The notes under the pieces were generated by a model. That model saw only the letters and a list, made by a program, of their open reading frames with translations. It was not told where the DNA came from and ran no database searches. A stretch of DNA of 64,000 nucleotides from positions 70,908,841-70,972,840 of the forward strand of contig NC_092048.1 of assembly GCF_003086295.3 (NCBI RefSeq), given 5' to 3'. The translations under genes and the position numbers were made by a program. Shown piece by piece: positions 14,210 through 61,037 of this stretch. Source of the DNA: Arachis hypogaea. Its lineage: Eukaryota; Streptophyta; Magnoliopsida; Fabales; Fabaceae. Each line of letters starts with the position of its first letter. Position 1 is the stretch's first letter.

Positions 14210-14257
14210 GTTGGGTTGCCTCCCAACAAGCGCTCTTTTATCGTCATTAGCTTGACG
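14210..14257 (-). other. Post-coding hairpin module of element F
   Basis: On the minus strand, hairpin 1 is CGTCAAGCTAATGACG (14242-14257), followed by a spacer with GAGCGCTT, and hairpin 2 is GTTGGGAGGCAACCCAAC (14210-14227; stem GTTGGG/CCCAAC, loop AGGCAA). It begins about 12 bases after the stop of the C-terminal tail. The same module is in E, H and the 52.8-kb copy. Confidence 0.8.
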
Positions 14258-14269
14258 GTTGGTTTACTA

Positions 14270-14827
14270 TTAGGGTGGATTGTAGTGCCTGAGATCCTCT
14301 CCTCTCACTGTGAAATTGTCCCCATTTGATTCCTTGACAATTTCCAAATGCTCCAGGGAAAGGACCTTTCTGATTGTGAACACTTGAGGTAACTAAGATG
14401 GAATGGTTGGAAGATGGGGTAGGATTTATGGATGGTGGATTGATATCACCTTGTCTCCAGGGGAGAAACCTTCTGTAGGAACCTTCTTGTTTCTCCATCC
14501 CCTTGGAAATTTCTTCACAACTCTTTTCTCTTCTTCCATTAGTGCTCCATTGACTCTTGTGTTAGGGAGATCCTTGTTAGCTGCTCTTCCTGATTCTTGT
14601 GGCTTCGGCTCTTCCTGGAACTCCATTGGTTGCTTCATCTCTTGAGCTTCTTGTTTATCCATCAAGGAAAGCTCCAGATGCTTGCATGGTGGTTCATTGC
14701 AGTTTTCCTTTAGAGAGCTCTCACTGTATTCTTCCTTTAATTTCTTGCTCTCTTGCCCAGATTCATGCACGGGCTTGAAGGCCTGGAAAGTGAGCTGCTC
14801 ATCATGTATTCTCAGTATCAACTCTCC
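14270..14827 (-). pseudogene. C-terminal polyprotein tail fused after protease (element F)
   Basis: This is the last coding part of the F polyprotein. After the protease end (DEQLTFQAFKP) comes a hydrophilic Glu/Lys-rich linker, then WRNKKVPTEGFSPGDKVIS, and after a stop the segment FTIRKVLSLEHLEIV...FTVRGEDLRHY. That last part corresponds to the extreme C-terminus of integrase in Athila-type elements (compare FTVNGHRLKHYLGA in H at 37.6 kb). RT, RNase H and the integrase core, normally ~1000 residues between protease and this tail, are missing. Element E joins the same two parts in the same way. At least two stops interrupt the tail (after ISIHHP and before LPQVFTI). The job of this tail without the enzyme core is unknown. 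Confidence 0.7.
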
Positions 14828-15412
14828 TTATTCTACATCAATGAGTGCTCGATCAGTAGCGAGAAATGGTCTCCCCAGAATAATGGGATGGAGGTAACTT
14901 TCCTCCATGTCCAGAACAACAAAGTCAGTGGGGAGGAAGTAGTTTTCTACTTTCACCAATACATTTTCGACTACTCCTCCGGCCTGCTTCTTAGTTTTAT
15001 TTGCCAATTGGATGATTACATCCGTGGATCTCAGCTCATTGATTTGCAACTTCTTCATAAGAGATAGAAGCATCACATTTATGCTAGCCGCTAGATCACA
15101 AAATCCTCTGTCAATTTTTGTCTCTCCTATGGCACATAGAATACGAAAGCTCCCTGGATCTTTTTTCTTCAGGAGTACGTCCTTCTGAATGAGAGCACTG
15201 CATTCCTTGTTCATCACCAATGTTTAGCTACCCTTCAGTTTGCTCTTCCTGGCTAGTAGCTCCTTCACCCACTTGATACACGTAGGCATCTGTTTGAGGA
15301 TTTCGAGGAAGGGAATGTTGACATGAAGAGTCTTAAGTTCATCTAAGAATTTAGTATATGTTCTCCCTTTCTCACAGTCCTTGAGTCTCTGTGGGAATGG
15401 TGCTTGTGGCAC
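14828..15412 (-). pseudogene. Retropepsin-like protease domain with altered active site (element F)
   Basis: This is an aspartic protease domain that would cleave the Gag polyprotein. The lead-in FPQRLKDCEKGRTYTKFLDE and the phrase LHVNIPFLEILKQMP (15224-15412) are the standard stretch before protease in plant Athila/Tat polyproteins. A stop separates them from the domain proper, which starts MVMNKECSALIQ (15220). The flap-side hallmarks FLPTDFVVLDME and HPIILGRPFLAT are clear. The catalytic motif, DLGAS in E and in the 49.7-kb copy, reads DLAAS here, so the conserved glycine of DTG/DSG/DLG is lost and activity is doubtful. Upstream it joins gag; downstream it runs into the C-terminal tail. 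Confidence 0.8.
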
Positions 15413-60446: not shown

Positions 60447-60934
60447 ACCTCGCATTGTCTAAGTGTGGGGAGACTCTCCCTCCCAAGTCACTATCCAACA
60501 CAATATTCAAGTGGGTGAAATTCTTTCCCTTAAGCTTCACTTTCTCACTTGAATATGGCTTGATTGAAATGGATGGGCAACTTAGAGCTCTTTACGGAAT
60601 TAATAGTAAGAGGGAGTTGTGTAGTGGTTGGAAGTATGGTATTAGGCTCATTAATGTCAAAATTCCAAGGCGTAGGGACCATGATTGGATGAATGCTACC
60701 TTGTGTGGGTCTAGAAGGATAATTTGGTGTGCTAAAGAGAATTCTATGTGTCAACCACCCGGATGGAAGAACCATGATAATCAACTAGAAGACGGGTGTG
60801 AAAATAAAGTGTGGGATCCCGGGTCACACAAGGAGAACCTAATTTGGGAGCCCCAAGCTTGTGAAGAACTCCATCAAGACTTGGTGCAACTCATGAGAAA
60901 TCTTGGGTCCCAATGGAGAACCAAGCATTGGTAG
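60447..60934 (+). CDS. Unknown X-element protein, KVWDPG domain (plus strand)
   Basis: I do not recognise this protein. An open frame of ~160 codons runs from the end of the FIDEL-type LTR to a TAG at 60932; its own start is upstream and lost, since the in-frame ATG at 60404 lies in the LTR. It reads FFPLSFTFSLEYGLIEMDGQ, LRALYGINSKRELCSGWKYG, then DHDWMNATLCGSRR, CQPPGWKNHDN and GCENKVWDPG, with a tail rich in Glu, Gln and Trp. Cys, Trp, His and Gly residues are spaced as in a small metal- or nucleic-acid-binding domain, but that is a guess. A decayed copy is at 31654-32090 on the minus strand. It lies ~85 bases before the 18-nt hairpin. Confidence 0.55.
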
Positions 60935-61019
60935 ATGTTCAAGGATAGCTTCAAGCACAAGCCACCTTGATGAGGAGCTCCCCATAAGTCCAACTTAAGG
61001 ACAATAAACAAAAGTGCTA

Positions 61020-61037
61020 GGTGGGAGATAACCCACC
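61020..61037 (+). other. Hairpin of the X element (plus strand)
   Basis: GGTGGGAGATAACCCACC has a six-pair stem GGTGGG/CCCACC and loop AGATAA, preceded by AAAAGTGCTA. It is the exact counterpart of 31587-31604 with one loop change. Confidence 0.75.

What the first reader, a model, noticed from the sequence alone, without database searches (positions are those of the whole stretch)
14210..61037. An 18-nt hairpin with covarying stem and conserved loop occurs after the coding region of six different elements
Six 18-nt sites have a 6-nt stem, a 6-nt loop and the other stem arm: GTTGGG-AGGCAA-CCCAAC (14210-14227, -), CATAGG-AGGCAA-CCCATG (24371-24388, -), GTTGGG-AGGCAC-CCCAAC (37672-37689, +), TTGGG-AAGCAA-CCCAG (52796-52811, +), GGTGGG-AGACAA-CCCACC (31587-31604, -) and GGTGGG-AGATAA-CCCACC (61020-61037, +). 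Stem arms change in step (GTT/AAC, CAT/ATG, GGT/ACC) while the loop stays ARRYAM. Each is preceded by AAG(C/T)GCT. In E, F and H a first hairpin CGTCA-AGCTAR-TGACG starts 12 bases after the stop codon. The elements differ in everything else, and two have no pol. Covariation indicates selection for an RNA structure. Possible jobs are RNA packaging, translation of downstream ORF2, or 3'-end/splicing control. I do not know a published description.
Basis: partly seen in the sequence, partly recalled or inferred. Interest (0 to 1): 0.86.

Follow-up and report, generated by a model that had tools for sequence, protein, structure and literature searches.

The report
Conserved RNA hairpins behind gag-pol stop
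Abundant retrovirus-like jumping genes of peanut carry a short folded RNA signal at a nearly fixed distance after the stop codon of their main gene, strongly conserved between families that differ around it, which suggests an undescribed control element for retroelement RNA.

Summary
The six hairpins are real, but each is half of a module of 51-54 nt: hairpin 1 (GTC..GAC), RAGYGCT, hairpin 2 (NNTGGG-ARRYAM-CCCANN), then a T-rich tract. It follows the stop codon of the upstream coding frame in three classes of Ty3/gypsy, Athila-like elements: with pol, without pol, and a third class whose upstream ORF has no known domain. A covariance model finds 13 copies in 200 kb of mid-chromosome DNA. Of 32 loci picked by the ORF2 protein, 29 carry it upstream. 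GTC starts 12-17 nt after the stop in 47 of 52 copies. The module is more conserved than both flanks in 36 of 36 between-family pairs. Covariation is moderate: three stem pairs pass a test limited to the proposed structure; none passes over all column pairs. Accidental translations occur in Stylosanthes and Trifolium proteins, so it seems not confined to peanut. Coding, polypurine tract, readthrough into ORF2 and simple reinitiation are disfavoured. Best mechanism, unproven: a cis-acting RNA acting at translation termination, most like the Rous sarcoma virus stability element that shields a stop codon from decay. Packaging is the main rival. I found no published description.

The parts
14208..14258 (-). 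module, element A (gag-protease element without RT/integrase core): hairpin 1, GAGCGCT, hairpin 2 (14210-14227)
   Evidence: (70.3 bits)
14270..14272 (-). coding stop of element A (TAA after ...RHYNPP), 13 nt before GTC
24369..24419 (-). module, element B (gag-protease, no RT/integrase core; ORF2 downstream); hairpin 2 at 24371-24388 has one A-C mismatch
   Evidence: (66.8 bits)
24430..24432 (-). coding stop of element B (TGA after ...KHYQPP), 12 nt before GTC
22738..23640 (-). ORF2 of element B, Transposase_32 (PF20167), 300-aa open piece
   Evidence: E 3.3e-42
18650..20955 (-). 3' LTR of element B
   Evidence: 94% identical to 27531-29790
27531..29790 (-). 5' LTR of element B; primer binding site TGGCGCCGTTGCCGGGGA just inside
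37641..37691 (+). module, element C (RT, integrase upstream); hairpin 2 at 37672-37689
   Evidence: (74.1 bits)
37628..37630 (+). pol stop of element C (TAA), 12 nt before GTC
52764..52814 (+). module, element D (protease, RT-RNaseH, integrase upstream; ORF2 downstream)
   Evidence: (63.6 bits)
52732..52734 (+). stop of pol frame in this copy of D (TAA), 31 nt before GTC; the five other D copies have it at 12 nt
54109..54489 (+). ORF2 piece of element D, Transposase_32
   Evidence: E 3.9e-29
31585..31638 (-). module, element E (third class; upstream ORF without Pfam match); 54-nt form with loop AACTTAA
   Evidence: (60.4 bits)
31654..31656 (-). coding stop of element E (TAA after ...KHKPP), 17 nt before GTC
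60986..61039 (+). module, element F (third class); 54-nt form
   Evidence: (59.0 bits)
60968..60970 (+). coding stop of element F (TGA after ...KHKPP), 17 nt before GTC
37692..37751 (+). T-rich tract after module C (T 0.47 in 60 nt), with acceptor-like TTTCTTAG
55956..55991 (+). second conserved hairpin GTTGCTTG-GGGA-CAAGCAAC and PPT-like TAAGTTTGGTGT before the 3' LTR of D

Best explanation
The hairpins belong to one cis-acting RNA module of Athila-like LTR retrotransposons. It starts 12-17 nt behind the stop codon of the upstream (gag or gag-pol) reading frame, about where the leading edge of a terminating ribosome would be (recalled and inferred), and is followed by a U-rich tract. Shown: position, conservation, presence across families, in-step change of two stem pairs. 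Inferred: the full-length RNA is also the gag-pol mRNA, so its stop codon is followed by kilobases of untranslated RNA and should be a target of nonsense-mediated decay. The folded module plus U-rich tract would bind host factors (perhaps PTB-like) and mark this stop as normal, sparing the RNA that is both messenger and genome. I hold the existence of a selected RNA module at about 0.93, a role tied to translation termination at about 0.55, and the decay-shield version at about 0.38.
For: Spacing stop-to-GTC is 12-17 nt in 47 of 52 copies, with unrelated coding tails and spacers; the stops of these 47 are TAA 33, TGA 13, TAG 1. A T-rich tract follows: T 0.458 in the first 60 nt against 0.284 in the linker; above the copy's own linker median in 51 of 52. 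Presence in three element classes and in 29 of 32 ORF2-picked loci. Between nine family representatives identity is 0.78 in the module, 0.57 upstream, 0.55 downstream. The Rous sarcoma virus element also sits directly behind gag (stability elements behind pol and src are reported too), works through polypyrimidine-binding PTBP1 and loses activity when moved away from the stop (PMC4764554 and PMC2925335, passages).
Against: No RNA, decay or binding data. The Rous element is larger (minimal 155 nt) and no sequence likeness was tested. The spacing may be inherited rather than selected, or merely mark where coding must end; many of the 52 copies are close relatives. The T tract is weak in families A and B (0.32-0.38; 0.30 in L071) and could be a splice acceptor. 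Hairpin 1 is only 3 bp in family D. G-family spacing, read by eye, is 19, 19 and 38 nt. That class 3 upstream ORFs are gag is not shown.
Confidence: 0.38

Rival explanations
1. Genome selection or packaging signal: Gag binds the exposed purine loops, so that full-length RNA, including that of elements without pol, enters particles. Cis-packaging coupled to the end of gag-pol translation would also fit the position.
For: Retained in elements without RT/integrase core and in some without detectable ORF2; small stems whose loop and upper stem are nearly constant while the two lower pairs of hairpin 2 vary; conserved as sequence and structure.
Against: Does not require the near-fixed spacing to the stop codon. 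Among the copies examined none was seen to lack an upstream ORF; such copies would favour packaging. Packaging signals usually lie near the 5' end (recalled).
Confidence: 0.25
2. Control of splicing or export of unspliced RNA: the module sits just before a 3' splice acceptor that removes gag-pol to make an ORF2 mRNA, and holds splicing back or exports the unspliced form.
For: T tract plus YAG after 12 of 19 modules against 11% of 5649 background windows, some very acceptor-like (L011, L014, L018, L023, L027, L028). Predicted env splice acceptors in BAGY2 and Athila are mentioned in PMC2829016 (passage).
Against: 7 of 19 have no acceptor by this rule, including A and both B copies; an RNA spliced there would still carry many ATGs before ORF2. 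Five database proteins of the G family read from the module through the tract unspliced, but their source is not named and may be DNA.
Confidence: 0.17
3. Initiation of ORF2 translation (internal entry or reinitiation after the gag-pol stop).
For: ORF2 lies downstream in 11 of 19 copies; E and F have ACCATGG right after hairpin 2, and arms of the CAT/ATG type hold an ATG.
Against: 12-27 ATGs before ORF2 in the six loci where it begins MASSS (12-45 over all ten); ORF2 matches start 0.7-2.5 kb away; 8 of 19 copies without detectable ORF2; no ATG at or right after hairpin 2 in A, C and the G copy L018, and in E and F it opens only short frames (read).
Confidence: 0.05
4. A conserved small peptide: one frame across the module is open in many families (RQANDxKxALVGRQPN).
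For: Open frame in many copies; found in database proteins.
Against: Third codon positions in that frame carry the fewest substitutions (21 of 96; the other two frames have 38 and 37 of 96 at third positions), the reverse of coding; the frame is stopped in E and F and is not in a constant relation to the gag-pol frame (read).
Confidence: 0.02
5. A DNA-level feature, such as the extra internal polypurine tract reported in the linker of Athila4 and Calypso.
For: GGGAGG is purine-rich; an extra PPT in the linkers of Athila4 and Calypso is mentioned in PMC2829016 (passage).
Against: The sequence at the 3' LTR edge is TTTAAGTTTGGTGTTG in B and D, preceded by a different hairpin; its internal copies lie elsewhere in the linker.
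Confidence: 0.03

Closest known systems
Rous sarcoma virus RNA stability element (RSE)
   Same: Directly behind the stop of gag on a full-length RNA with a very long 3' part; contains stem-loops and pyrimidine-rich sites; depends on distance to the stop (passages of PMC4764554, PMC2925335).
   Different: 155-400 nt against 51-54 nt plus a T tract; animal retrovirus; decay protection shown there, not here.
Termination-reinitiation sites (TURBS) of caliciviruses (recalled)
   Same: Structured RNA at a stop codon; contains UGGGA.
   Different: TURBS lie upstream of the stop and act on a start codon next to it; here the module is downstream and UGGG is in the stem.
Readthrough structures behind a stop, as in murine leukaemia virus (recalled)
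   Same: Structure a few nt behind a stop codon.
   Different: The frame behind the stop ends after 0-77 codons (median 29) in 47 of 47 copies and reaches no ORF2; spacing here 12-17 nt against about 8 recalled.
Conserved non-coding motifs of Sireviruses (PMC2829016, passages only)
   Same: Conserved non-coding motifs in a plant LTR retrotransposon lineage (title and passages).
   Different: Ty1/copia lineage; 'hairpin' and 'stem-loop' do not occur in that paper's text.
Internal polypurine tract of Athila4/Calypso (mention in PMC2829016, passage)
   Same: Conserved feature of the same pol-to-ORF2 linker.
   Different: Separate sequence and position, if TAAGTTTGGTGT is its counterpart here.

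Membership tests
RSE-type decay-shield element | lies directly behind the gag (or pol) stop codon | tested here: met
   12-17 nt to GTC in 47 of 52 copies; others 21, 31, and the G family 19, 19, 38 by eye; class 3 upstream ORF not shown to be gag
RSE-type decay-shield element | polypyrimidine-rich sites behind the stop | tested here: inconclusive
   T-rich in 51 of 52 relative to own linker, but one tract only and weak in A and B; PTB binding not testable
RSE-type decay-shield element | protects RNA from UPF1-dependent decay | not testable with these tools
   needs reporter half-lives
Athila lineage of Ty3/gypsy | gag-protease-RT-RNaseH-integrase order with extra ORF downstream | tested here: met
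   full order seen in L013; window C and D and the other D copies in part
Athila lineage of Ty3/gypsy | tRNA-Asp primer binding site as in Calypso and Diaspora | tested here: inconclusive
   TGGCGCCGTTGCCGGGGA after the LTR of B; match to tRNA-Asp is recalled, its use in Calypso/Diaspora is in a figure legend of PMC1142308
Athila lineage of Ty3/gypsy | RT phylogeny inside Athila | not tested
   no reference RT set was used
TURBS | upstream of the stop, next to a start codon | tested here: not met
   module is downstream of the stop; ORF2 start is far
Stop-codon readthrough signal | long in-frame extension behind the stop | tested here: not met
   next in-frame stop after 0-77 codons, median 29, in 47 of 47 copies with a placed stop
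Known Rfam family | match over gathering score | tested here: not met
   none at the modules (site C only): best 16.9 bits, E 0.11, a Burkholderia sRNA on the other strand

The most novel reading that the evidence does not exclude
A plant retroelement termination switch: the loop of hairpin 1 (RCU) pairs with AGY of the conserved RAGYGCT to make a small H-type pseudoknot that folds just outside the terminating ribosome, and this element, shared by papilionoid legumes and perhaps more widely, decides whether the full-length RNA is decayed, translated again or packaged. It could be among the most abundant structured RNA elements in the peanut genome.
Probability: 0.15. Interest if true: 0.85.

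Novelty: new variant of a known kind. Interest (0 to 1): 0.62.

Why it matters
Cis-acting RNA structures that govern translation end, decay, splicing or packaging are well known in animal retroviruses and, to my knowledge, hardly known in plant LTR retrotransposons. Here is a compact, testable module of about 51 nt in an abundant lineage of peanut, with signs of it in other legumes. It also gives a sequence mark for the end of the main coding frame that works across families too diverged to align, useful for annotation of elements without pol. If the shield idea holds, it tells how an abundant plant retroelement keeps a bicistronic genome RNA out of decay.

Tried and rejected
Hairpin alone as signal: hardly above chance. 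Coding peptide: disfavoured by codon-position counts. PPT: disfavoured. Readthrough: frame ends within 77 codons in 47 of 47. Rfam: none. Pseudoknot pair 8-30 (loop R with Y of RAGYGCT): compatible in 37 of 37 unique copies (GC 27, GT 5, AT 5) but p 0.02, rank 27 of 1431, and Y variation fits CpG decay, so not claimed. Pair 2-18 (C-G to T-A) also fits decay of two CpGs. G-U against A-C as a test of RNA against DNA: 8 against 7 cells in hairpin 2 (counted), no asymmetry. Folding energy against 200 shuffles: z -0.88 to -3.52 in six real copies of six families and -0.84 in D copy L014; B-type, D and G are unremarkable, and the E copy folds differently in hairpin 1. IMG/VR scan: no match. Literature: ten searches (one search was on the Rous element); some searches listed only part of their hits (20 of 32, 8 of 21, 12 of 34, 12 of 847). 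Wright and Voytas 2002 and Vicient 2001 are not held, so an earlier description there cannot be excluded.

Limits of sampling: the 20 stretches of 10 kb are one place per large contig, mid-chromosome, not random; the ORF2 loci are 12 best plus 20 chosen by me from the 150 listed, so families with top-scoring ORF2 are over-represented. Two copies (L003, L008) were cut on the wrong strand; both were left out (n=52 copies, 36 unique), and L008 was put back, typed, only (37 unique).
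Full report
What was checked. The window lies in an unnamed 2.557 Gb genome of 440 contigs; the ORF2 protein of element B has its best named matches in Arachis hypogaea, so the window is taken as peanut. All six hairpins are present as described, with the corrections listed in the observation check. 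Taken alone, a six-base stem with loop ARRYAM is hardly above chance (36 against 25.9 +/- 4.7; 1 of 20 simulations reached 36).

What it is. Aligning the six sites shows a module of 51 nt (54 in E and F): hairpin 1 with nearly constant GTC/GAC, a spacer with TAA, RAGYGCT, and hairpin 2 with nearly constant TGGG/CCCA and two variable outer pairs. A covariance model from 22 copies finds all six sites and 13 copies in 200 kb taken by place, one 10-kb stretch from each of 20 contigs; scores fall from 51.7 bits to 14.2 with nothing between. That is about one per 15 kb in these mid-chromosome stretches; if it held for much of the genome there would be of the order of 100,000 copies, an extrapolation.

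Where it is. With protein pieces of the window as queries, 18 of these 19 copies lie in one of three contexts: (1) pol pieces (protease, RT, integrase) upstream, (2) gag-protease without RT/integrase core, (3) ORFs related to those of E and F; the 19th (L028:9736) is cut 214 nt upstream and shows only ORF2 downstream. Loci chosen without the module, by the ORF2 family PF20167 alone, carry it upstream of ORF2 in 10 of 12 and 19 of 20. The exceptions are L049, L050 and L056. The stop codon of the upstream frame, found by homology of the coding tail, lies 12-17 nt before GTC in 47 of 52 copies: 23 at 12, 2 at 13, 2 at 14, 2 at 15, 13 at 16, 5 at 17. The other five: L041 21 (broken frame), window D 31 (earlier stop than its relatives), and the G family, where the script found no trustworthy tail (it printed 115 for L018 and none for L023 and L028); reading the protease frame gives 38, 19 and 19. 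The 47 stops are TAA 33, TGA 13 and TAG 1, and the frame behind them ends after 0-77 codons, median 29.

Constraint. Identity between nine family representatives averages 0.78 in the module, 0.57 in the 130 nt upstream and 0.55 in the 130 nt downstream; the module is higher in 36 of 36 pairs on both sides. Within seven families it is higher than upstream in 89 of 94 pairs and than downstream in 93 of 94. A window-based comparison of seven sites agrees: median 0.37-0.47 in 30-nt flank windows against 0.43 for shuffles, 0.67-0.73 in module pieces of other lengths. DNA alignments between elements of the window (A with B, C with D) end 4 nt inside the module's 3' edge; that of E with F runs 23 nt past it.

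Structure. In 37 unique copies the outer pairs of hairpin 2 read GC 16, CG 13, GT 5, TG 1, AC 2 and AT 14, TA 12, GC 5, CG 3, TG 2, CA 1. My own test, in the style of R-scape (tree, substitutions reassigned along branches), ranks 35-52, 2-18 and 36-51 second, third and fifth of 1431 pairs; first is 53-54, neighbours outside the stem (E 0.135). Over all pairs the best stem pair has E 0.19, not significant; limited to the 11 proposed pairs, E is 0.001, 0.004 and 0.023; without the six window copies 0.004, 0.015 and 0.031. Seven of the 11 pairs hardly vary and say nothing; pair 6-14 is often mismatched (A-G, C-A) and does not pass (E 0.238). Pair 2-18 could reflect decay of two CpGs; the family differences of hairpin 2 are not of that kind. 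In database translations of the module the residues that hold the two variable codons also go together: of 32 proteins examined (31 hits and my query) 27 matched the peptide pattern, V..N 12, H..M 8, I..N 2, five others once each; 3 of the 31 hits have a named organism, and many of the rest are probably peanut.

Beyond peanut. Three named proteins are accidental translations of the module: P0107 and P0113 from Stylosanthes scabra and P0109 from Trifolium medium (profile E 8.9e-4, 3.6e-3, 1.2e-3), for example RQANDDKEALHGRQPM in Trifolium against RQANDDKRALHGRQPM read from L067. Trifolium is in the NPAAA clade, Arachis and Stylosanthes in the dalbergioids. Their DNA could not be read, so structure and place there are not shown.

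How it may work. Three facts weigh most: near-fixed distance to the stop, a T-rich tract directly behind (51 of 52), and retention in elements without RT/integrase core. They fit an element that acts on the terminating ribosome of the long full-length RNA. The Rous sarcoma virus stability element does this: it lies behind the gag stop, recruits PTBP1 to pyrimidine-rich sites, limits UPF1 binding and fails when placed away from the stop; stability elements behind pol and src are reported too (passages of PMC4764554 and PMC2925335). That plants decay mRNAs with long 3'UTRs is recalled. I therefore rank the decay shield first (0.38), packaging second (0.25), splicing or export third (0.17). For the last, 12 of 19 modules are followed by a T tract and YAG (background 0.11), but not in A and B. 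ORF2 translation by scanning is unlikely: 12-27 ATGs intervene in the six loci where ORF2 begins MASSS, 12-45 over all ten read, four of which have a broken or later-starting ORF2, and 8 of 19 module copies show no ORF2 downstream (a diverged ORF2 or interrupted elements could explain part).

Known or new. None of the papers listed by the ten library searches describes it by its title or abstract start; several lists were cut. The core GGGAGGCAACCC occurs in one paper, on a prophage (listing only). Two key older papers on Athila-type envelopes are not held. In the Diaspora (PMC1142308) and Athila (PMC2410132) papers of the library a term search for hairpin, stem-loop and secondary structure found nothing. 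I rate it a new variant of a known kind: retroelement cis-acting RNA, in a plant lineage where I know of none at this place. The lineage name Athila rests on gene order, ORF2 and primer site, not on a tree.

Noticed in passing
window 55956-55991; L011, L013, L014, L018, L022, L023, L027, L028: A second conserved hairpin, GTTGCTTG-RGGA-CAAGCAAC, with PPT-like TAAGTTTGGTGT 23 nt after its match start in 10 of 13 copies (the 3 others have an altered PPT-like sequence), both before the 3' LTR and inside the linker before ORF2; the outer pair is mostly G-C at the LTR and T-A inside.
   Followed up: partly
window 16446-16548 and 26555-26661: Rfam family snoR71 (RF00097) scores above its gathering cut-off on the strand opposite to gag in elements A and B: either a false match or a sign that the family is of retrotransposon origin.
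   Followed up: no
The 40 best copies of the E site all lie on C11-C20, and 39 of 40 best copies of the C site too, which suggests amplification in one subgenome (that C11-C20 are the B subgenome is assumed).
   Followed up: no
linkers of D, L018 and others: Short palindromes of the type GGCGTT-N-AACGCC, repeated between module and ORF2.
   Followed up: no
window 31654-33958 (-) and 60404-60970 (+): The third element class has upstream ORFs without a Pfam match above cut-off, ending in ...FKHKPP or ...YKHKPP, like the ...KHYQPP end of the pol-less elements.
   Followed up: partly
Transposase_32 gives 71,409 first-look candidates in this genome (150 scored); some ORF2 frames of up to 606 aa are open.
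   Followed up: no
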